IMG/VR virus record: IMGVR_UViG_3300009059_000042
Location: 1 to 31,274 of that record
Reading direction: 5' to 3' (one strand)
Origin: a virus
DNA length: 31,274 bases
A model generated the notes under the pieces. That model did not search any database and was not told where the DNA came from. It saw only the letters and a program-made list of their open reading frames with translations. Both the position numbers and the translations under genes were made by a program. This document shows, piece by piece, positions 2 to 30,335 of this stretch; the stretch's first letter is position 1; each line of letters starts with the position of its first letter.

Positions 2-3000
2 GTCATGGAAGCTGCCAACTTCAACACTGAGCGTGAGAACGCATACAAAGAAACCATTGAAGCTAAAACCGATGGTGACTTTGTGGCTGGCCTTAAACGA
101 ATTGGCCGCGATGCAATCGACAGCGTTACCAACTCGACTATGGACGGTTCAACCCTCGCAGACGGGACATTGAATGCTCTTGGTTCCCTGCTTGCAGCTG
201 GTCCTTTGAGCAAAGGTGTTCGTGCCCTCGGTGGTGCAGTGTTGCCCACTGCTGTTAAGACAGCCGTTCCTGCAAGCACTGCTGCTGCAATCAGCAAGAC
301 AGCACCTGTGCTTACTTCTATTGGTGGTATCGAGGCTGGTGGCTCTTACCAGCAAGTCGTATCCGACATCATGGGCCGTGACCATGAAACGCTCATGGCT
401 GAGTCGCCAATGTACCGTGAACTCATTGGCCAGAATGTCAGCCAAGAAGACGCCAAAGCTGAAGTGGCAAACAAAACTGGTTTGCTGTCTGCTGCCATCA
501 CCTTCCCGGTTGCGGCTGCAACAGGTTCGCTTGTCAGCAAGTTTGAAGCAGCGCCCTTCGTAAACCAGGGGATTGCCAAAGCTGCCAGTACCTTACTTCG
601 TGAGCCAACTGAAGAAGCTATCCAAGGTGGTGCTTCCCAGCTGGCACAGAACTATGCCGAAACCCAAATCTCAAATGAAAACAAAGACTTGGCTGAAGGC
701 GTTGGCCGTCAAGTTGGTGAGGGTGCTCTCTACGGTCTAGGCATGACCGCAATCACCCAAGGTCCGGGTGCTGCTGTTCGTACCGGGGCTAAAACACTTG
801 CTGCTGCTGGCAGTGCAATTGGTGGCAGTCTGAGTGCCCGTGCTGACGCTGTACGTGAAGCAAACGAAGCTGCCTCCCCGATCTCTGACTCGGTTGTATT
901 TGAAGCCGCAACTGGTGCAGCAGCTAACGCAGAAGAAGCCAGTGCTGCTATGCGTGAGGCTGTGGCCACTTCGGAAGCTGCTCCAGAAGAGCAAGCAAAA
1001 GCCAACAGCTACATCGACAAGCTGGTATCCGCAGCTCGCTTTGATGAAGCAGAGCTGGCAAATCCCTATGTGCCTGAAGCAGCCCGTACTGCTCTCGTTG
1101 GTTCAAGCAGCCGTGTCGAAGCTGCTCAACGTCTGGTTGATGTCATTGATGCAATGGAAGACGGCTCGTCTGAACAACTCAGTGCAAGCTACGCTCTGCA
1201 ACAGATCATTGAGCCAATCAACAACATTCTGATGAGCGAAGAGTTCTCTGATGACGCTATCCCAGAGAACAGCCCAGCAGGCGCTATGCTGCGTGAATAC
1301 GATGGGATGATGGCATCGGCTATGGGTAGCCCCAAAGTCACTGCTGGCATGGCCCGTATCGCCCAGATCGCAGCCAAAGTAGCTGCTGAGCAAGTAGCCA
1401 ATCCTCCAGTGATCAATGATGAGACAGTCGCTACCCCTGAAGGTCAGCAGAACGTACAGAACACAATTGCCGTGGCTTCTATTGAGCCAGGCAAAGGTGA
1501 TTTGGGGACTGTGGAACAGGTGCTGTATCAGGTTTCCAAGGGCAACGTGACCGTCACCCCTGAACAAAAGGCTGCACTAGATACGACTGTTGCTCTGCTT
1601 CGTGCTGCACGTTCTGCTAGTGCGAAAGCAGAAAGTCTCGGACTCAATTCCCGTGAGGAACTTGTATCCCGGAATATTAAGACCGATGACGGTGAGAAGG
1701 GGAAATCTGCGGTGCAGTTTGCACAGGAAGTTATGTCTGCGTGGAAGGCGGGTAACCGTGATCTCGCAGCTGACACCCTGCTCCATCTCCGTGAATTTGC
1801 GGAGCACATGGGCAACAAGGTCAAAGCCCTTAATGCACATTTTGTTGCGGGCAATCCGCAAGCTCCAGGAATCGGTTATGACTCCCTTACCCCTGATCGT
1901 AGTTGGGTGTCGTCTAACACCCGTCTGTTTGTAAACACAGGCAACCAAAAGTCTATCGAAAAGGCTCAACGTATTGCCGGTGAAGCGGCTTTCGTGGCCG
2001 ACGTGCTTAATGGGTTGGCTGATGCCTTTCCCGATTTGAGTGTTGAACATATTGATGTTACTCCGCTGGATTCGGCACTGAACAAACCAGCTTCTGAGAT
2101 TTTCTCGGACTACAAAGCGGCTCGGCAGCGTTCGTCTGTTGCTGAGTCTGATGCTACCAGTACGGTTGTGCCGGAAGCACCTATTGTTGCTCAGGAAGAA
2201 GTGCAACCTGTCACAGCAGAAACTACCCAAGAAACCGTTGATACGGTGGTAGAACCTGTAACTGAAGTTGTCGATGCCCCGGCTGAGACTGTTGCTCCTG
2301 TAGCTACAGTAGCGCCTGCACCTGTGAAAGCACCCACCGTTGGTCAGGGACTGGCTGCACTTTTCCCTTATCTGGCTGGCAAGGTGAACTACTTCACCAA
2401 GTCGTTTACTCTGCCGGAAGAACCACGCACTCGTACCATTGGTACTGAAGCGCCACTTGCCTTTGTAAAACAAGCACTTAGCAGTTCGATGAACCAGGCT
2501 GTTCTACAAAAAACTGGCACGGACATTCCTGTTGGCGTGATCTCGGCGTACCAGGATTATCTAGGTCTGGGTGACAAGATGGTTTCTGCTTTGCAGAAGA
2601 ACCTTGGAAAATTCCTGACCGAGAAAGGTGTTGGTGAGCGATTCAAAAACGGTGTGGATGTGAACCGTTGGGTTGAAGGCAAAATCCTGAACATCACTGA
2701 AGAGGTAAATGGGAGTTTTGTTTACAACCAAGAATTGGTTGAAGGTGCTGTTCTTGCCGGCCTCCAGTGGCTGCTGACTGCTGATCAGCTTGGCTCCATT
2801 CTGGATCACACTGATGTGGCTGAAATCACCGGGCTGAACGAAGAAGTCATCTCTGAGGACTTGGTGACTGACTTCAACGAAGGCATGGCCTCCTTTGAAG
2901 CTGTGCAGTCTCTGGCTGCAAAGATCACAAATTACTGGGGTGTTACAGCTTCCCCGGATGGCCTGCGTGGCTACACCAAAGGCATTCCTGAAGTCATGGC

Positions 3001-6000
3001 TTCTGAGATTCTGCGTGTCTTTGCTGACAACGGTGCAGTGACGATTAAAAAAATTGCCCTGCCAAAAGTGGAAGGTGTTACCCCTAAAACCCCGGAACGT
3101 GTTGTTCCTATGGTGTTTGCTCGGGATACCAAAGACAGCGAAGGTTCCCCACTGTTGAAGTTTGTGGATGCCATTGAGCAGACAGTGATGCTGGAACCGG
3201 AAGAGACCTATTTCATTGGTGACGATGCAATCCCACCTGTCTCGCCTACTCAGATGCGCAACCCACTTGTGCAGAACACACCACAGCAGTTGGAAGCTAT
3301 TGAGAACGAACAGGCTACGCCGTACTACGTGGATACACGTATGGCTGCGTTGTACCAGTCGCTTGGTATGGACAAGGTGCTTGATTTGTTCGGGTTGGTT
3401 CCACCGGAACAAAAGACACTGAACATCAACCACGCTGCATCTGAAGATGGCAAATACCGTGGCATGGTTGCAGCTTTCCAGCACATGACTGGTTACCTTG
3501 ATTCTGTGTCGAACTACGCACGGAACAACGGCAAAGCTCTGGGTGAAACTGTCTTCCGTTACGGATTCAATATCAGCCGAGTTGGTCGTTTGCAGATGCT
3601 TGGTAAGTACAGCCCACAAGCCAACAAGATGGTTCGTGAGTTGTTCATGCCTACTCGCACCACTCTCGATATGAACCAAGGGAAAAGCCGTAAGCTGTTT
3701 ATGCTTGCTGCTGCACAGGCTCTTGATATCAAAGTGCACAAAAAAGACACCAATGCTGCAATTGCTGAAGCAGAGCTGCTTGTGTCTGGTTCTTTGGCTC
3801 CAGCTATTGAAGCTCTGTCTGGCTTCTTTGGTAGCTTTGCTGAGCCGGTTGACGCGAATGTCCCAGTTATCGAAGCAAGCCCTGAGCTGAATGGCACCAT
3901 CAAAAAAGCATTTGCTGATGCTGGTGTTCCGCTGACTCCAGCTGCTTTGCATGTAATCACTGAACTTGCTTGGCTGGGAAAACTGACGCCAACACAGAAA
4001 GCAACATTCACTACCAACTTGTATCTAGAAGCGGACGGCATTACCAACGGGCCAATCAATGCCATGATGCTGTTTGCTTCTGGGATGTTTACAACCAGCT
4101 GGCTGAAGAACATGGCCAAAGGTGGTCTGTTTGTTAATCGTGGTCCAATGACTGCGAACGAACAGTACAGCCAGTACGACAAGAAAGACTTGTACCAGGC
4201 CACTACTGACGTACTCCAAGAGCAGGTAAATACCCTGCGTGAATCTCTGGGTAATGATCCTGTCATGAGTAAGCACCTCAATGAGTTGCTGTCGCTGATG
4301 GATTCTTTGCTGCCTACTCTGAGCTTTGATGGAACCAACTTGGTTCTTGATCGTGGCATTACCAAAAACCCACTGACCATTACGATTTACGGTTCTGGGG
4401 CTACTGGTATTGCTGCCAAGCTAACCAAAGCACTGGCTGACTCGATGTACGAAAAGATGTCTCTGTTGGCTCAAGCTCGCATTGATAATCCATCCATCTC
4501 GTTGGCTGATGCCGTGTTCAACGGGGATGAAGTGCAGGCCAAGAAATTCACTTCGGCTCTGTATCGAATTGGTAATTACAAAGTCTCGTTGGACAAGAAG
4601 AAGCTTGTTCTTGAAAAAGTAGCTACTTCCCGTAATGACGGGGTTGATCCTCAAACTTACACACTGACACCGGCTGAGTTCAGCAACATTCAGTCGAGCA
4701 TGCTGCACCTGTTTGTTCAGCCAATGCGTAATGCAATTGAGCAGACTGTCGGTGCAGCAACTATGGAATCTGCTGTGCTTCTTCGTCAGGCCACACAGGT
4801 TCAGTCGATCATTCTGGAACAACTGTTCAAAGATCAAGTTGCTGCTGAGATGGCTCGTAAAGCTAAGACTGACAGTGATTGGACTAAGACAGAGTTCCTC
4901 AGTGATAAAGAGCTGAAGCGCATCTACAAAAAATTGGAGCGTTTCTCTCCTCTGATCAAAACCCCACACCAGACTTTTTACGTTGCTGGTTCCAGTTCTG
5001 TGGATGTGAACGCCTCCCAGTCTTCCCGTGCATTGGACGGCTCTTTCCGTACTGACGCATTCATTCATGGGCCTAAGAATGCTGGCGTGTCGGGCATTCC
5101 TTTCCTGAACATCGGGGCAGGTGATGCGAACATGATGCAGATTGCATCCACCATGAATGGTGCACCTGATCGCACTCTCAAAATCTTTGACGGTGTGCAT
5201 TTGCCCCTGGACCTGATTCAGGATGGTAGCGTCAAGATGAACGAGGCTGTTTGGGAAACCTGGATGGGCAACCCAATGCAGGCAGTGGCTGACAGCTATG
5301 TTGCCTTTATGAAAGAGGCACCATTGACCGGGTACACCGATGCAACTCGTAGTGCATTGGTTCGTGCGTTGTTCCCACCGTCTATGTGGAAGAAGCCGGT
5401 TCCTGATGCTGAGATTGTTGCTGGCATGCAGAACCTGGTAGGCAAGCTGACAACAGCGGCAGAAAGCATTGAAGCCCGTCATCGTGTTATGGCCAAGGTG
5501 GAAACCTCTGTTGACCAGATGGCTGCTGGTGCCTCTCCTTATTTCAAAGCAGGTGAGATTGCCCTTACCGGGATGTCAAATGAGGAAGTGACCTCAGAGT
5601 TGAATGCCCTTTACCAAGAAGAGTTGGCTGAGCTTCGTAAAAACAAAGCACCTTCTGGTGATTCCACTGCTGCTATTTTGCAGGTTGCTCAGAAGCACGA
5701 GAGCGGTGCTTTTGTTATGCACAGCAGTGACTTGAAGCAATTCAGCAAAGCAACAACATTCCCAGCTGACCAGCAGAAAGTCTTGGATGAGGTTACGAAA
5801 TCTCTGGCTGCTGACGGCTACAAGATTGTGTTTGGTAACCCGCTGAAAGTGAACGAGTACATCAAAGCCACAGGTGCTGCTGGTGCTCAAGGTAGTGCTA
5901 TTCCAGCCGGTGAGATCAAGGGCTTCACCAACGTGGGTGAGAAAACAATCTACCTGTTCAACCCATCAACTGAGACTTTGATCCATGAGTTGATTCACGC

Positions 6001-9000
6001 TTCTACCTTTGAAAAGGTGTTGGCGTACTACAACAAGCAGCCTATGGGCACTGTAGAAAAAGAATCGGTACAGCGTATCGAGTCGATGATGAAACAGTTC
6101 CTGGCCATGGAAGACAACTTGGATCAGCCTAATCAGCAGCTGGCCCAGTCGTACACCGACACCGTTTCTGCCATCAAGGGCTACCTGAACAATGCTTCGC
6201 TTCCTGGTTCTGTGGCCAAAGCCGGTGCACTGAACGAGTTCATGGCTTGGTCTCTGTCCAATGAAAGTCTGATCCGTTTGGGTCAGCGGACCATGCTGGA
6301 CAAAATGGCCCGCATTGCTCGTGAGGTTGTGAAAGCCATTAAGGCCATCTTCTTCAAAAAAGAAAATGCCCCTTATGTTGGTAATGACCTGTTCAGCAAC
6401 TTGCTGTTCAACACTGCCGTTGTTATGCGAGGCAACCCAACGACTGCACAGCGTATGGCAAGCAGCGTGCTTTATCAGAACAGCCAGTACGGCCAAGATC
6501 AGCGTTTGACTGATGTGGGTGTGGCTTACCAGACACTGATTGGTCGATACCTGAACGCACCTATCCGAGCTGGTGAAGTGGCTCCACGGGATGCCGTTGA
6601 TAAAGGGATTATGGCTGGCCTGAACATCGGTAAGTCTTTCCAGGCTCGTGGCTTTAGCATGACCCAGCAAGAAGCCCATGTGTTTGAGAACATCATCACT
6701 GCTCTGGCTACAGAAGCAGCTATTGATCCAAACGCAATGGCCACTGCACAGCAGCTTTATTCTTGGGTAACCAAGCAGCTGACTGTTGAGCATTTCATGG
6801 ATGACGCAGACAGCCTGAACCCGGCTACCCGGTATTACGCTCAGGAAAAGTTCAACAGCATCATGGGTAAAAACCTTGTCGAGAATGACTTGGCTGGTCG
6901 CTCCAGTCTGCTGCCTGCTTTCCTCGCATTGGCTACTGTGAACGCTGAGTTCCGTTCTGTGCTGTCCGGTATGAAGCTGCCTAAAACAGCAAAGGATACT
7001 TCTGGTGGTCTTGATGCTCTGCTGACCAATGCTGGTAACGCTGCAATGGATAGCCTCTCCAGCCGTTTGGCTGGCATCAAGAAAGGTGACATCACCGTCG
7101 ATGCTGCCATTGATGCCCTTAACCAACGCATTGCCGATCAGGTACAGAACAACGAAACCTTCATTGACCAGTTTGCTCAGACCACTGGACGTGGTGTTGA
7201 CCGTGCAAACGAAATCGTCATAGAGGGTATGACCAAGTTGGCAGATGCTGCTTATGAGAAAGGTGCTGACCTCAACAAAGCAGAGAACAACACGATTACT
7301 CGTGCTGTTGGTGCAAGTGCTCAGGCGATTGGCATGATCCTTTCTGAAGAGCGTGGTGCTCTTGCAGCACAGGGTTTGACTGAGGCCATGAACAAAGTGA
7401 ATGGCTGGGCACCGGTGCGTTCTTTGCTGAATGACCTGGTAGGCCGTACCGACTCAAACGCCAAGATTTACGACATGATCAAAGGCGTTCGTTCTGTGAT
7501 TCAGCAGGCACGTCAGCAATTCCGGGAAGACCTGCCGACTCTGATTGCCGACAAGTTCACCCGTTCTTTGAGCAAAAAAGAATGGTCCAGCCTGTTCCGT
7601 GGTATGGGTAAAACTGACTTGGCCGTTCTGCGTGCGTATTTCGATAACAACGCCATCCGTAAAATGCTGACTGATGAACAGGATTTGGCTGCAAAAATCA
7701 CTACCTTGGAGAACTACATTCAGGGCATTGATCCAGCCAACTACGCCACTTACCAACGCAAGATGGTGCAGCTGGCCAAGTACATGAACACTGGTGTGGC
7801 CGGCCAGTACCTGCTGCGAAATGCTGAAGCCATCTCCATGCTTATTGGGCAGGAGATTCAAGGCACCTTCCAACCGAAGGATGCAACCTTTGTTGCTTCG
7901 ATTGACCAGCTGGTGACTATGTACAGCCTGCAAGACTTGGCAGTTGAAGACAAAGCTGTCTTGGCTCAATTGGCTAAAGACGAAACCGTGGGTATGGATT
8001 TTGCATTGGATTATCTGGTTGGCCAGCGTAAAGAAGAAGTGAGCAAGGCAACTCCCCGTGCTCGACTGAACGCTTTCAAAGGTCACATTCCAAGTGAACC
8101 TGCTAGCTCGCTGTCGATGGTTGTTGCCGACGACAAAGACTTTGCAAAGCTACGTGGCAAGAGCTACGTGCGTGTCGGTGATTACGTTGGCTCTAAAGCT
8201 GAAAAGAGCAAATTCAAAAAGGGCTACTACTTTGCCCCTGTAGCTGCCCGTGCCACCTTTGAGCAAGGCATCATGCAGAACGTCCGTACATCTGTGTCTG
8301 GTGTGGATGCAGTGACTGGCTACAGTAATTTGGCCACTGCTGGCCGTGTCACATCGCCAGTGATGCTGAAGCGCTTTGCTACTGCCATGCTCAAGGACAA
8401 CACCGAAGCAGAAAGCCTGATGCCTGTTTTTGGTGAAAACGGTGAGCTTGTCGCTGTAGAGCGTGCTCTTGATCCAGTGATGATGGAACGCATGCAGGGT
8501 GAAACCAGCCTGGCTGTCTCTATCGGCATCTGGCGTGGTCGTCAGCACGAGGAGTCGATTGCTGGTATCTACAACAAGGCTTTGGTTGATGCTCAATACG
8601 AAATGTACAGCAAGGACATTGCCGAAGATGCAAGCAAGCAGGATCAGTACGTTGATCTGTTTGGCTCAAATCTTGATCCTGTTGTGGCTGATGCAGTGTC
8701 GTTGCTGACACCGGAAACTCGTGCCCACATCCAAAGCGTATTTGGCAGCGAATACTATGTCCGCAAAGATATGTTGGAAGACGCAATGGGTTACCGTTCT
8801 GCTTCCATCGGTGATGCCTGGACTGGCAACACTCGTTGGTCGCCTGAAACTCAGAAGGCAGTTCAAAATTTGGCAATCAGTGCCTTTGGAAATAAGGCAT
8901 ATCAGTACCTCACTAATGCTGAGCGAATCACTAATAACTTGGTGAGCGACATGCGGGTGCTGATTGTTGTTAAGTCGGTGGTTGTTCCTGTTGCCAACTT

Positions 9001-9826
9001 GATGTCCAACGTCTTCCAGTTGGTTGGCCGTGGTGTGCCACTGGCGAATATCGTCCGTGGTATGCCCAAGAAAACAGCTGAGATTGACGCTTATGTGAAG
9101 AGCCGTCTGCGCATGATTGAGGCAGAAGCTGAATTGCGTGCTGCTGTAGGCAAACCAATTGCCGAACGCCGACTGCAAGCAGAGATTCGTTCGATCACTG
9201 ACAGCCACAAACGTATGAGCATTTGGCCTTTGATCCAGGCTGGTGAGTTCAGCTCCATTTCGGATGCTGGTGTAAGCCGCGATGAGATCATGCTGAGTGA
9301 AGGGCGCTTGCACGCTTACATTGAGAATGCGGTAAACAAGTTGCCACAGCCTCTGGGTACGCTTGGTCGTTACGCCTTGATCACCAAGGACACTGCCTTG
9401 TTCCAGGGTCTTCAGAAAGCGGTGGAGTACGGTGACTTCCTAGGTAAAGCTCTGCTGTACGATGATCTGGTCAAGCGTCAGGGTAAGTCCAAGGAATATG
9501 CACTGGGACGAATTACTGAGGAATTTGTGAACTATGATCGTCTGTCCGGTCGTTTCCGGGCAACGCTGGAGAACCTTGGTCTCCTTTGGTTCTACAACTT
9601 CAAAATCCGTTCTACGAAGGTGGCGTTGTCAATGATCCGCAACAACCCCGTACACGCTCTGATTGCAGGCGCAGCACCTGCTCCTAGTTTGTTTGGGTCA
9701 GTGGGTCTACCGACTACCGATAACATCTTCAGCAAGCTGGTTGACGGCTCCCTGGACTACTCCATTGGTCCTGGCCAAGGCTTGAGTGCTCCAGAATTGA
9801 ACCCATGGATGAATTTGGTTCAATAA
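2..9826 (+). CDS. Giant virion-encapsidated RNA polymerase (N4 vRNAP/gp50-like), 5' end cut by window edge
   Basis: This protein is a single-subunit T7-like RNA polymerase embedded in a giant virion protein that, in N4, is injected with the genome and transcribes early genes. Counting from the ATG at base 5, the TxxGR-like motif is SRVGR (1191-1195), motif A is DGITNG with D1344, motif B is RGITK...Y with R1450, K1454 and Y1462, and motif C is FDGVHLP with D1729. The R/K/Y spacing (+4, +8) equals my recollection of N4 (R666, K670, Y678). The first 280 residues are rich in Gly/Ala hydrophobic stretches, followed by a Pro/Val/Glu linker near 720-780. An HELIH motif (1994-1998), with a candidate third ligand E2078, suggests a zincin domain after the polymerase. 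The frame is open upstream of the ATG and no ribosome site is visible, so the true start is probably outside the window; 3273 residues are visible against about 3500 in N4. Confidence 0.93.
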   Translation, partial: VMEAANFNTERENAYKETIEAKTDGDFVAGLKRIGRDAIDSVTNSTMDGSTLADGTLNALGSLLAAGPLSKGVRALGGAVLPTAVKTAVPASTAAAISKTAPVLTSIGGIEAGGSYQQVVSDIMGRDHETLMAESPMYRELIGQNVSQEDAKAEVANKTGLLSAAITFPVAAATGSLVSKFEAAPFVNQGIAKAASTLLREPTEEAIQGGASQLAQNYAETQISNENKDLAEGVGRQVGEGALYGLGMTAITQGPGAAVRTGAKTLAAAGSAIGGSLSARADAVREANEAASPISDSVVFEAATGAAANAEEASAAMREAVATSEAAPEEQAKANSYIDKLVSAARFDEAELANPYVPEAARTALVGSSSRVEAAQRLVDVIDAMEDGSSEQLSASYALQQIIEPINNILMSEEFSDDAIPENSPAGAMLREYDGMMASAMGSPKVTAGMARIAQIAAKVAAEQVANPPVINDETVATPEGQQNVQNTIAVASIEPGKGDLGTVEQVLYQVSKGNVTVTPEQKAALDTTVALLRAARSASAKAESLGLNSREELVSRNIKTDDGEKGKSAVQFAQEVMSAWKAGNRDLAADTLLHLREFAEHMGNKVKALNAHFVAGNPQAPGIGYDSLTPDRSWVSSNTRLFVNTGNQKSIEKAQRIAGEAAFVADVLNGLADAFPDLSVEHIDVTPLDSALNKPASEIFSDYKAARQRSSVAESDATSTVVPEAPIVAQEEVQPVTAETTQETVDTVVEPVTEVVDAPAETVAPVATVAPAPVKAPTVGQGLAALFPYLAGKVNYFTKSFTLPEEPRTRTIGTEAPLAFVKQALSSSMNQAVLQKTGTDIPVGVISAYQDYLGLGDKMVSALQKNLGKFLTEKGVGERFKNGVDVNRWVEGKILNITEEVNGSFVYNQELVEGAVLAGLQWLLTADQLGSILDHTDVAEITGLNEEVISEDLVTDFNEGMASFEAVQSLAAKITNYWGVTASPDGLRGYTKGIPEVMASEILRVFADNGAVTIKKIALPKVEGVTPKTPERVVPMVFARDTKDSEGSPLLKFVDAIEQTVMLEPEETYFIGDDAIPPVSPTQMRNPLVQNTPQQLEAIENEQATPYYVDTRMAALYQSLGMDKVLDLFGLVPPEQKTLNINHAASEDGKYRGMVAAFQHMTGYLDSVSNYARNNGKALGETVFRYGFNISRVGRLQMLGKYSPQANKMVRELFMPTRTTLDMNQGKSRKLFMLAAAQALDIKVHKKDTNAAIAEAELLVSGSLAPAIEALSGFFGSFAEPVDANVPVIEASPELNGTIKKAFADAGVPLTPAALHVITELAWLGKLTPTQKATFTTNLYLEADGITNGPINAMMLFASGMFTTSWLKNMAKGGLFVNRGPMTANEQYSQYDKKDLYQATTDVLQEQVNTLRESLGNDPVMSKHLNELLSLMDSLLPTLSFDGTNLVLDRGITKNPLTITIYGSGATGIAAKLTKALADSMYEKMSLLAQARIDNPSISLADAVFNGDEVQAKKFTSALYRIGNYKVSLDKKKLVLEKVATSRNDGVDPQTYTLTPAEFSNIQSSMLHLFVQPMRNAIEQTVGAATMESAVLLRQATQVQSIILEQLFKDQVAAEMARKAKTDSDWTKTEFLSDKELKRIYKKLERFSPLIKTPHQTFYVAGSSSVDVNASQSSRALDGSFRTDAFIHGPKNAGVSGIPFLNIGAGDANMMQIASTMNGAPDRTLKIFDGVHLPLDLIQDGSVKMNEAVWETWMGNPMQAVADSYVAFMKEAPLTGYTDATRSALVRALFPPSMWKKPVPDAEIVAGMQNLVGKLTTAAESIEARHRVMAKVETSVDQMAAGASPYFKAGEIALTGMSNEEVTSELNALYQEELAELRKNKAPSGDSTAAILQVAQKHESGAFVMHSSDLKQFSKATTFPADQQKVLDEVTKSLAADGYKIVFGNPLKVNEYIKATGAAGAQGSAIPAGEIKGFTNVGEKTIYLFNPSTETLIHELIHASTFEKVLAYYNKQPMGTVEKESVQRIESMMKQFLAMEDNLDQPNQQLAQSYTDTVSAIKGYLNNASLPGSVAKAGALNEFMAWSLSNESLIRLGQRTMLDKMARIAREVVKAIKAIFFKKENAPYVGNDLFSNLLFNTAVVMRGNPTTAQRMASSVLYQNSQYGQDQRLTDVGVAYQTLIGRYLNAPIRAGEVAPRDAVDKGIMAGLNIGKSFQARGFSMTQQEAHVFENIITALATEAAIDPNAMATAQQLYSWVTKQLTVEHFMDDADSLNPATRYYAQEKFNSIMGKNLVENDLAGRSSLLPAFLALATVNAEFRSVLSGMKLPKTAKDTSGGLDALLTNAGNAAMDSLSSRLAGIKKGDITVDAAIDALNQRIADQVQNNETFIDQFAQTTGRGVDRANEIVIEGMTKLADAAYEKGADLNKAENNTITRAVGASAQAIGMILSEERGALAAQGLTEAMNKVNGWAPVRSLLNDLVGRTDSNAKIYDMIKGVRSVIQQARQQFREDLPTLIADKFTRSLSKKEWSSLFRGMGKTDLAVLRAYFDNNAIRKMLTDEQDLAAKITTLENYIQGIDPANYATYQRKMVQLAKYMNTGVAGQYLLRNAEAISMLIGQEIQGTFQPKDATFVASIDQLVTMYSLQDLAVEDKAVLAQLAKDETVGMDFALDYLVGQRKEEVSKATPRARLNAFKGHIPSEPASSLSMVVADDKDFAKLRGKSYVRVGDYVGSKAEKSKFKKGYYFAPVAARATFEQGIMQNVRTSVSGVDAVTGYSNLATAGRVTSPVMLKRFATAMLKDNTEAESLMPVFGENGELVAVERALDPVMMERMQGETSLAVSIGIWRGRQHEESIAGIYNKALVDAQYEMYSKDIAEDASKQDQYVDLFGSNLDPVVADAVSLLTPETRAHIQSVFGSEYYVRKDMLEDAMGYRSASIGDAWTGNTRWSPETQKAVQNLAISAFGNKAYQYLTNAERITNNLVSDMRVLIVVKSVVVPVANLMSNVFQLVGRGVPLANIVRGMPKKTAEIDAYVKSRLRMIEAEAELRAAVGKPIAERRLQAEIRSITDSHKRMSIWPLIQAGEFSSISDAGVSRDEIMLSEGRLHAYIENAVNKLPQPLGTLGRYALITKDTALFQGLQKAVEYGDFLGKALLYDDLVKRQGKSKEYALGRITEEFVNYDRLSGRFRATLENLGLLWFYNFKIRSTKVALSMIRNNPVHALIAGAAPAPSLFGSVGLPTTDNIFSKLVDGSLDYSIGPGQGLSAPELNPWMNLVQ

Positions 9827-28888: not shown

Positions 28889-29302
28889 CTAAGTCACTTT
28901 GCTGTGACTACAAAATTGACAACGAAAAACGTTGGCGTCTTTGTCCCAAAGCATTTCACGTAAATGACATTTTGGGACTATCTTGTTGATTAAGAAGGGA
29001 ATTTCAGGGGAGATCTTCCACATCTCACAAACTCGATTGACGATTTTCAGCGCAGCATTCCACACTTTTTGATCGTCAGGTTCTCGGGAAAGACGCTTCA
29101 TGTTTGGTTGGTGTTCCAAGCACACCTTGTCTTTTAGCTGCCATGCCAGCTTACGAATAGCGTCAGCTGTATTGTGGATGCGGATTACCAAAGCCATGGC
29201 CAAGGCGACATCGCCAGGATGCCATTGGCCCCCTGACTTGGTTATGTAGCTGCGTTGCGGTAGAGCTTTGGGGAGGGTGATGAGATTGGTACGGCTTTTC
29301 AT
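28889..29302 (-). CDS. Hypothetical protein with C-terminal CxxC (137 aa)
   Basis: A mostly helical basic protein. Residues 30-110 contain helices (GDVALAMALVIRIHNTADAI, VWNAALKIVNRVCEMW) and the tail has C113 and a CQFC pair near 129-132, which may form a zinc site. Start: ATG at 29302 with GGAG six bases upstream. It is the first gene after the gene-free structured region and precedes the Cys-rich gene by 9 bases. I recognise no family. Confidence 0.68.
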   Translation of the reverse strand: MKSRTNLITLPKALPQRSYITKSGGQWHPGDVALAMALVIRIHNTADAIRKLAWQLKDKVCLEHQPNMKRLSREPDDQKVWNAALKIVNRVCEMWKISPEIPFLINKIVPKCHLREMLWDKDANVFRCQFCSHSKVT

Positions 29303-29330
29303 CTGCTGCTCCGAAAATACAGGGTCTTGT

Positions 29331-29410
29331 TGGTGCCGGCTTGCGCCTGTTCCGGCTGGCCTTCGGGTCTAGTGGCCCTGGCGGCTTCGCTCCTGCTCGG
29401 CCTGGCCCGA
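29331..29410. other. GC-rich gene-free segment with GGCC inverted repeats
   Basis: This stretch is about 70 percent GC (42 of 60 in 29341-29400) against about 50 percent around it. It holds several short inverted repeats (CCGG...CCGG, GCCGG...CCGGC, GGCC...GGCC), so either strand could fold tightly. It lies between the proposed structured RNA and the 137-aa gene. A frame across it (29163-29426, minus) overlaps the 137-aa gene and looks accidental. It could be the 3' domain of the RNA or acquired DNA. Confidence 0.6.
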
Positions 29411-29502
29411 TTGCTTGACGCCTCACGACGTTACCTTCCTGCCCAGTTGGAATGAAACGGCAGCGTTAAGCGCCTTCCCAACTGGTTTTGATGTGCGATA
29501 TT

Positions 29503-29678
29503 GCACATCGGACTTGAACATGGTCAGGTGCGTCCACCCTACAATTCCCACGCATGGGGGAGTCGAACCCCGGCACGGATGTTGTGTTCTCAGAGGCTGC
29601 CATAACCCTAGTTTCCGCAGCGTGATCACTACCGTGTTGCATCCCGTCCAGAATTGGCCGTGTTCAAGTCCGATGTGC
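29503..29678. repeat. Exact 18-bp inverted repeat enclosing a tRNA T-arm-like hairpin
   Basis: GCACATCGGACTTGAACA at 29503-29520 is the exact reverse complement of 29661-29678; the arms enclose 140 nt. A second, inner pair CAATTC/GAATTG (29542-29547 and 29651-29656) lies inside. Between them the minus strand carries GGTTCGACTCC (29559-29569), identical to the tRNA T-arm consensus, but no cloverleaf can be built around it. Confidence 0.85.
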
Positions 29679-29717
29679 CCTGCATGCAGGCTATCGGGCA
29701 AAACTGATCAACTCACA
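29657..29717 (-). repeat. 61-nt direct repeat, copy 1, with nested hairpin
   Basis: This copy aligns without gaps to 29852-29912 at 48 of 61 positions. Both copies conserve the nested stems CCGAT/ATCGG and CCTG/CAGG, while the apical loop bases differ (CATG here, TTTC in the other). The differences fall mainly in loops and unpaired positions, the pattern expected of RNA under structural constraint. Confidence 0.8.
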
Positions 29718-29851
29718 ATGGTATTGGTAATGAGTGAAAATTCATTCCCTGTTGCTTGCACTAGAAAACTGCGGCGACATAAATGCCCGTGTTCCTCATC
29801 GTCAAAGCTCAGAATCTTGATTCACCCATTCCAATACCATTGCGGGTATAA

Positions 29852-29912
29852 GCCGTGTTTACGTCCGATGTGACCTGTTTCCAGGTTATCGGATAAGACT
29901 AATCAACTTGCA
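29852..29912 (-). repeat. 61-nt direct repeat, copy 2, with nested hairpin
   Basis: Second copy of the hairpin unit, 195 bases from the first. Here the inner stem gains one more pair (A29873 with T29886), where copy 1 has a C-C mismatch. Each copy sits immediately beside one strand of a long helix, as if the same module (hairpin plus long arm) had been duplicated. Confidence 0.8.
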
Positions 29913-30137
29913 TCAGGTGGAACACTCTAACAGGACGCCTCACTCATTCGTCCACATTTCGCCCGTGTAACAAGCCCCGGAGCGGGTTAGAGGTACGTGT
30001 CTTGGCAGCTACTTGAGGTGGGCCGACTCCCACTTGAATTTCTCTTTCTGGCTCAGTGCCCTGAGCTGATTTCGCTGTTGCACACATCAAAGTGTTCCCT
30101 GATGCAAGCTGATTAACCTAGAGGTTACCGCTAAAGC

Positions 30138-30335
30138 TTACTCTTCTTCAGCAGCAGCACCGGCTTCGCTTTTTTTGATGCGATTGCGGATGGCCTGCAT
30201 ACCTTCGATTACCTCGAAAGTATCGGCTTCCGTTTCAACCACGACAACGGCGTTGTCTTCGCGGATGGCGACGATGGCCGAAGTACGGATGTCGATTTTC
30301 TTGCCGTTTTTCTGAGTTGCACGAACGAAGCTCAT
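30138..30335 (-). CDS. Small hypothetical protein (65 aa), FlbD-like beta pattern
   Basis: The pattern of MSFVRATQKNGKKIDIRTSA, IVAIREDNAVVVVETEA and FEVIEGMQAIRNRIKK resembles a small beta protein with a terminal helix, like FlbD-type proteins, but the similarity is only a pattern. The tail is acidic (EAGAAAEEE). AAGGAA lies five bases before ATG at 30335. Its stop codon is 23 bases from the first base of the proposed structured RNA. Function unknown. Confidence 0.7.
   Translation of the reverse strand: MSFVRATQKNGKKIDIRTSAIVAIREDNAVVVVETEADTFEVIEGMQAIRNRIKKSEAGAAAEEE

What the first reader, a model, noticed from the sequence alone, without database searches (positions are those of the whole stretch)
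29490..29697. Mutually exclusive folds: 18-bp long-range helix against two local hairpins
The arms of the exact inverted repeat (29503-29520, 29661-29678) overlap one side of the hairpin at 29490-29509 and one side of the hairpin at 29670-29697. Forming the long helix breaks both. The related arm at 29853-29873 could also pair with the same partner at 16 of 18 positions. This is the arrangement of a bistable switch or of an RNA that assembles between copies.
Basis: seen in the sequence. Interest (0 to 1): 0.75.

Follow-up and report, generated by a model that had tools for sequence, protein, structure and literature searches.

The report
Strand-swapping RNA element in N4-like phages
A phage related to N4 carries a stretch of non-coding, heavily folded RNA in which a short early hairpin is predicted to be pulled apart by a long helix as more RNA is made, and cousins of the phage carry the same three-strand arrangement in different letters at the equivalent genome position, which suggests that the folding exchange is selected and not an accident.

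Summary
An 18-bp perfect inverted repeat (29503-29520/29661-29678; never above 15 in 60 shuffled windows) overlaps a 7-bp hairpin (29490-29509) and the outer half of a second hairpin (29670-29697). It lies in an ~835-nt non-coding, strongly folded gap (29303-30137) of an N4-like phage (Schitoviridae), where relatives carry tRNA/ncRNA islands. No Rfam family matches.

A true equilibrium switch is not supported: the long helix has probability ~1 on either strand and the hairpins ~0. Folding growing transcripts gives an exchange in time: the first hairpin forms (p 0.8-1.0) and is displaced once the far arm is made.

Relatives support selection on the arrangement. RiverRider, Pokken, Paxi, Piffle, PB119, Philippe, Zuri, Ebordelon, Holyagarpour, 98PfluR60PP, Arace01 and Meara carry a hairpin whose 3' strand is also the 5' arm of a long helix, in several unrelated sequences, with compensatory changes and one clean three-strand change (CCAAT/ATTGG/CCAAT versus CCGAT/ATCGG/CCGAT). 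Against: Littlefix has weakened the hairpin; no homologue of the window's own helix was found; its strand is ambiguous; no RNA data exist. Most likely it is a co-transcriptional strand-exchange element of an undescribed phage ncRNA. Assembly between copies is untested.

The parts
29303..30137 (-). non-coding structured island between the DUF7740/phrog_7614 gene (28889-29302) and the phrog_7594-like gene (30138-30335), both on the minus strand
   Evidence: minus-strand fold z -4.4, plus-strand fold z -4.7; no Rfam, tRNA, Pfam or plasmid match; in phages only a short match to RiverRider at its 5' end
29661..29678 (.). arm of the 18-bp long helix (plus-strand extension to 29654)
29503..29520 (.). 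other arm of the 18-bp long helix (plus-strand extension to 29527)
29490..29509 (.). competing hairpin GATGTGC/GCACATC, 7 bp; on the + strand it extends to 29487-29512 (10 bp, two G.U)
29670..29697 (.). second competing hairpin; outer 5 bp exclusive with the long helix, inner CCTG/CAGG compatible with it
29405..29411 (-). ATCGGGC, predicted minus-strand partner of 29693-29699 once the long helix has formed (p 0.98)
29852..29908 (-). second copy of the repeated module; hairpin 29864-29893 with GAAA loop, p 0.96 in the full fold; its arm could replace 29661-29678 (duplex -23.8 against -37.1 kcal/mol)
29714..29844 (-). second long-stem domain (29831-29844/29714-29727 and 29821-29830/29729-29738)
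29896..30119 (-). first long-stem domain (30098-30119/29896-29917 and 30086-30097/29920-29931)
29990..30085 (-). element conserved in RiverRider (GTGTGCAACAG ... GCTGCCAAGACACnTACC), with U-A to C-G change in stem 30029-30033/30018-30022
29443..29485 (-). 10-bp helix 29476-29485/29443-29452
29559..29580 (-). T-arm-like hairpin (GGGGTTCGACTCCCC) inside the long-helix domain; no tRNA called there

Best explanation
The finding is a strand-exchange element in an untranslated, structured RNA made from the tRNA/ncRNA island of an N4-like phage. As the RNA is made, the first arm is held in a local hairpin; when the far arm (about 150 nt later) appears, it invades the hairpin by branch migration and the long helix closes a domain, leaving the hairpin's other strand free to pair elsewhere (in the window, 29693-29699 with 29405-29411). 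The final state is the long helix; the hairpin is an obligatory or guiding intermediate rather than a second stable state. Shown: the sequence elements, the energies and prefix folds, and the recurrence and covariation in relatives. Inferred: that the RNA is transcribed, the order of folding in cells, the strand used in the window, and any function (proposed: timing or fidelity of folding of a structural ncRNA).
For: Prefix folding on either strand: the first-made hairpin forms at p about 0.8-1.0 until the far arm is made, then the long helix takes over at p about 1.0. The same trajectory is predicted in 10 relatives: hairpin p 0.99-1.00 before the third strand, long-helix overlap p 0.84-1.00 after it, long state better by 1.2-12.8 kcal/mol. 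In six phages (RiverRider, Pokken, Paxi, Piffle, PB119, Philippe) the long helix has 9 pairs changed on both sides and 93% of cells paired (0/500 shuffles reach the number of double changes), while the overlapping hairpin is 98.5% paired. Zuri/Ebordelon/Holyagarpour and 98PfluR60PP share an upstream motif, so they are homologous, and differ in all three strands together (CCAAT/ATTGG/CCAAT versus CCGAT/ATCGG/CCGAT). Islands: 11 of 30 long helices carry a competing hairpin on the 5' arm against 8 of 135 elsewhere (Fisher 3.5e-5, related phages counted separately), nearly all of one polarity; 13 cases against a shuffled mean of 1.15, maximum 4. The position between the dCTP deaminase and thymidylate synthase genes is shared by most of them.
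Against: No homologue of the window's own helix was found, so its pairing rests on one sequence; only the first domain (29990-30085) is shared with RiverRider. Littlefix, 79% identical to 98PfluR60PP, has a deletion that weakens the hairpin while keeping the long helix and the downstream hairpin. The hairpin in the six-phage set is not significant on its own (83/500), because its core is invariant. The alignment across groups was chosen for the pairings, and the phages within a group are not independent. 98PfluR60PP, Littlefix and Meara carry their copies at other places in the genome than next to the dCTP deaminase gene or slightly displaced from it. The window case has the opposite polarity relative to its genes, and its G.U pattern points to the + strand although the flanking genes and the first two domains point to the - strand. 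No transcript or probing data.
Confidence: 0.5

Rival explanations
1. Static structural RNA: the long helix is the only meaningful fold, and the hairpins are by-products of duplicated or palindromic sequence pieces.
For: At equilibrium the long helix has p about 1 and the hairpins about 0. The window contains a 57-nt duplication and an inverted copy of part of it. Littlefix weakens its hairpin. The hairpin alone is not significant in one set.
Against: Recurrence in the islands of related phages in several unrelated sequences, three-strand covariation, and enrichment against shuffles and other sequence.
Confidence: 0.27
2. RNA that assembles between copies: arms paired between molecules (domain swap), as in the RNA cages of GOLLD and ROOL, which are also encoded in phages near tRNA islands.
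For: Position at tRNA islands in relatives; GOLLD and ROOL precedent (PMC12286853); palindromic CCTGCATGCAGG at 29679-29690 and two possible partners for one arm.
Against: No GOLLD or ROOL match at any threshold. The intramolecular helix is strong and close in sequence. A 12-nt palindrome is expected by chance in 31 kb.
Confidence: 0.12
3. Regulatory switch at equilibrium (riboswitch- or attenuator-like) that controls downstream middle genes by a ligand- or protein-dependent choice between the folds.
For: Mutually exclusive pairings upstream of phage genes, conserved in relatives.
Against: Energy gap of 3.5-8 kcal/mol in the window and up to 12.8 in relatives. No terminator or promoter is coupled to either fold in the window. 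The domain between the arms varies from 53 to about 235 nt with little sequence conservation.
Confidence: 0.06
4. DNA-level element (cruciform, replication or recombination site, hairpin promoter) with no RNA function.
For: Inverted repeats also act in DNA, and N4 virion RNA polymerase uses hairpin promoters (own knowledge).
Against: The hairpins have 4-7 nt loops; no 5-7 bp stem with a 3-nt loop was found in the gap on either strand. Strand polarity and G.U-compatible changes in relatives favour RNA.
Confidence: 0.05

Closest known systems
GOLLD RNA (RF02032) and ROOL RNA (RF03087)
   Same: Large, heavily folded phage ncRNAs of unknown function, often encoded near tRNA islands (PMC12286853; accession numbers from memory)
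   Different: No covariance-model match in the window or in the relatives' islands examined, even at loose thresholds; multimer formation untested
tRNA islands of Schitoviridae (RiverRider, Pokken, Piffle, Philippe)
   Same: Same genomic place between dCTP deaminase and thymidylate synthase; RiverRider shares the first RNA domain
   Different: The window has no recognisable tRNA there, and its spacer sequence is otherwise unrelated
Co-transcriptional strand exchange in riboswitches such as yxjA (PMC9756952, seen as an abstract only)
   Same: An early helix is displaced by a later strand during transcription
   Different: No ligand domain is known here, no coupled terminator, and a much larger domain lies between the arms

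Membership tests
GOLLD RNA | match to the Rfam covariance model of its conserved 3' region | tested here: not met
   cmscan of the window and of relatives' islands, at gathering and loose E-value thresholds
GOLLD RNA | homo-oligomeric cage | not testable with these tools
   needs native gels or cryo-EM
ROOL RNA | match to the Rfam covariance model | tested here: not met
ROOL and GOLLD RNAs | encoded in phages near tRNA islands | tested here: inconclusive
   relatives have tRNAs at the same locus; the window itself has none
strand-exchange element recurring in Schitoviridae islands (described here) | local hairpin sharing a strand with one arm of a long helix of at least 13 bp, in a non-coding island | tested here: met
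   window 29490-29509, 29670-29697 and 29503-29520/29661-29678; 11 islands of relatives
strand-exchange element recurring in Schitoviridae islands (described here) | strong competing hairpin on the 5' arm in the sense of the genes | tested here: not met
   in the window the strong (7-10 bp) hairpin is on the 5' arm only on the + strand; in gene sense the 5'-arm hairpin is 5+4 bp
strand-exchange element recurring in Schitoviridae islands (described here) | sequence homology to the other cases | tested here: not met
   no alignment above the shuffled range except the first domain with RiverRider
riboswitch or attenuator | coupled terminator or ribosome-site sequestration | tested here: not met
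   no intrinsic terminator on the minus strand in the gap; ribosome-site sequestration was not examined

The most novel reading that the evidence does not exclude
N4-like phages encode an undescribed class of large non-coding RNAs whose common hallmark is a conserved strand-exchange junction (hairpin first, long helix later), kept by three-strand covariation while all other sequence turns over; the exchange drives ordered folding or domain-swapped assembly of the RNA.
Probability: 0.3. Interest if true: 0.82.

Novelty: new variant of a known kind. Interest (0 to 1): 0.58.

Why it matters
If right, this is a natural RNA in which a folding intermediate, not only the final fold, is under selection, as shown by one strand that covaries with two partners. 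Such cases outside riboswitches and viral leaders are few. It also points to an unannotated set of structured RNAs in the tRNA islands of a common phage family, at a place where only tRNAs are usually annotated, and gives natural sequence variants on which co-transcriptional folding can be tested.

Tried and rejected
Rfam, tRNA, Pfam and PHROG matches for the gap: none in the gap itself. Degenerate-tRNA idea for the T-arm-like hairpin: ARAGORN calls appear only at a relaxed score and look like noise. Motif scans of IMG/VR for the repeated 17-mer and of IMG/VR and GTDB genomes for the RiverRider element: only chance coding hits, or RiverRider itself. Close relatives by RIIB, thymidylate synthase and DUF7740 protein in IMG/VR: none. 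Plasmids: none. N4 virion-polymerase type hairpins in the gap: none. A first G.U filter missed the window's own case; it was corrected. In one search the fold with both hairpins enforced and the long pairs forbidden failed technically; the free fold without the long helix (-49.9 against -81.8 kcal/mol) was used instead.

Full report
WHAT THE WINDOW IS. The window is a fragment of an N4-like phage (Schitoviridae). It has a 3273-codon open frame on the + strand at 5-9826, which by its size and by the gene order of N4 is taken to be the virion RNA polymerase. On the - strand lie DNA polymerase, Dda-like helicase, RIIB, RIIA, thymidylate synthase and dCTP deaminase genes. The nearest DNA polymerases are those of Achromobacter phages and Pseudomonas phage inbricus at 67-68% identity. 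The finding lies in a gap without recognisable genes at 29303-30137, between two small genes on the - strand. Two open frames cross the gap; they have no Pfam match.

THE OBSERVATION. The inverted repeat and both hairpins are as described. The 18-bp perfect repeat is well outside the shuffled range. On the + strand the helix is 25 bp with three G.U pairs; on the - strand these are A.C mismatches. The long helix excludes the whole hairpin 29490-29509 but only the outer 5 bp of hairpin 29670-29697. The gap holds two other long stems (22+12 bp and 14+10 bp) whose non-Watson-Crick positions are mostly G.U on the - strand (9 against 2). Both strands fold better than shuffles (z -4.4 and -4.7).

ENERGIES. 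In the full-length - strand fold the long helix has probability about 1 and both hairpins about 0. Exchanging the outer 7 bp for hairpin 29490-29509 costs 3.5 kcal/mol; making both hairpins while keeping the inner helix costs 8.0. On the + strand the costs are about 8-9 kcal/mol in local folds. So there is no equilibrium bistability by these parameters. Folding growing transcripts gives an ordered exchange on either strand: the hairpin that is made first stays at p about 0.8-1.0 until the far arm is made and is then displaced. In the - strand fold the freed strand 29693-29699 then pairs with 29405-29411 (p 0.98).

THE ISLAND IN RELATIVES. In RiverRider, Pokken, Paxi, PB119, Piffle and Philippe the corresponding place is a 2-3 kb island of tRNAs with long spacers. 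phiAxp-3, JWAlpha, Zuri, Ebordelon, Holyagarpour, Meara and Arace01 have 0.2-1 kb gaps near the dCTP deaminase gene. RiverRider shares one element with the window (29990-30085): local score 54 against at most 34 in 500 shuffles. The element has a compensatory U-A to C-G change in one stem and a closing long helix in the same place but with different letters. A covariance model of this element finds only these two phages among about 90 records and loci. Rfam finds little but tRNAs and a weak hammerhead in these islands. Conserved spacer blocks with some covariation exist in the Pokken group.

THE SAME ARRANGEMENT RECURS. A scan of the islands for a long helix with a competing local hairpin gave 13 cases where shuffles give 1.15 on average and 4 at most. 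With stricter, strand-aware rules, 11 of 30 island helices carry a competing hairpin on the 5' arm, against 8 of 135 elsewhere in the same and related records (Fisher 3.5e-5; related phages are counted separately, so the true weight is less); only one island case, the window's, has the hairpin on the 3' arm in gene sense. In six phages of the RiverRider/Pokken/Philippe group the strands are CAGATGT, GCATCTG and CAGATGT (CGGATGT as the first strand in Piffle); the domain between them varies from 53 to 140 nt and the inner long helix differs in sequence with 9 double-change pairs (0/500 shuffles). The hairpin is 98.5% paired there, but its covariation alone is not significant (83/500). Zuri, Ebordelon and Holyagarpour have CCAATGCA, TGCATTGG and CCAATGCA; 98PfluR60PP, homologous by a shared upstream hairpin and linker, has CCGATATA, TGTATCGG and CCGATGCA, so strand 2 changed together with both partners. 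Arace01 and Meara give further versions. 98PfluR60PP also has a downstream hairpin placed as in the window. Counts over the groups are; that alignment was assembled for the pairings and is therefore biased in their favour. Predicted trajectories agree in all 11 sequences tested.

COUNTER-EVIDENCE. Littlefix, the nearest relative of 98PfluR60PP, has a one-base deletion that weakens the hairpin, while its long helix and downstream hairpin are kept, the latter with a G.U to A-U improvement. The window's own helix has no homologue. Its G.U pattern and the polarity of its strong hairpin match the relatives if read on the + strand, against the direction of the genes, while the other two domains of the gap and the synteny with RiverRider favour the - strand. 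The strand is therefore open. That the window element belongs to the recurring kind is inferred from position and anatomy, not from sequence homology.

VERDICT. The best account is a co-transcriptional strand-exchange element in an undescribed structured phage RNA, not a two-state equilibrium switch. The function is unknown; ordered folding is the most economical proposal, and multimer assembly as in GOLLD and ROOL (PMC12286853) is a live but untested alternative.

Noticed in passing
L004 5866-5915 (RiverRider, minus) and L110 about 2510-2545 (Philippe): Hammerhead-ribozyme-like cores (CTGATGAG...CGAAA) near the start of the islands; RiverRider scores 25 bits, below the Rfam cut-off.
   Followed up: partly
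L106 4381-4570 and equivalents in L107, L108, L109, L004: A conserved spacer block (CTGGATGACTTCATCCTTCAAGACGG...ATAAATGTC.ACGAAGGGT) with covarying closing pairs, not in Rfam; a weak 50-nt match also lies in Burkholderia phage Mica, a record of only 43.7 kb (E 0.03).
   Followed up: partly
L113 5258-5353 (JWAlpha) and about 4670-4810 of L114 (phiAxp-3): tRNA-Leu-like genes with abnormal anticodon loops: ARAGORN reads a four-base anticodon in JWAlpha, and the anticodon region is expanded by about 30 nt in phiAxp-3.
   Followed up: no
L122 about 2660-2760 (Zuri), with matches in L126 and L127: A tRNA-like element with a 7-bp acceptor-like stem, T arm and CCA end but no ordinary D or anticodon arm; its 3' part (about 45 nt) is conserved in Arace01 and 98PfluR60PP, in the latter at another genome position.
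   Followed up: no
L106 and L004 islands: Conserved inter-tRNA blocks are permuted between Pokken and RiverRider, which suggests modular shuffling of the island.
   Followed up: no
window 29310-29410: G+C-rich end of the gap without matches in phages or plasmids.
   Followed up: partly
window 29559-29580 (-): T-arm-like hairpin GGGGTTCGACTCCCC inside the long-helix domain, without a callable tRNA around it.
   Followed up: partly
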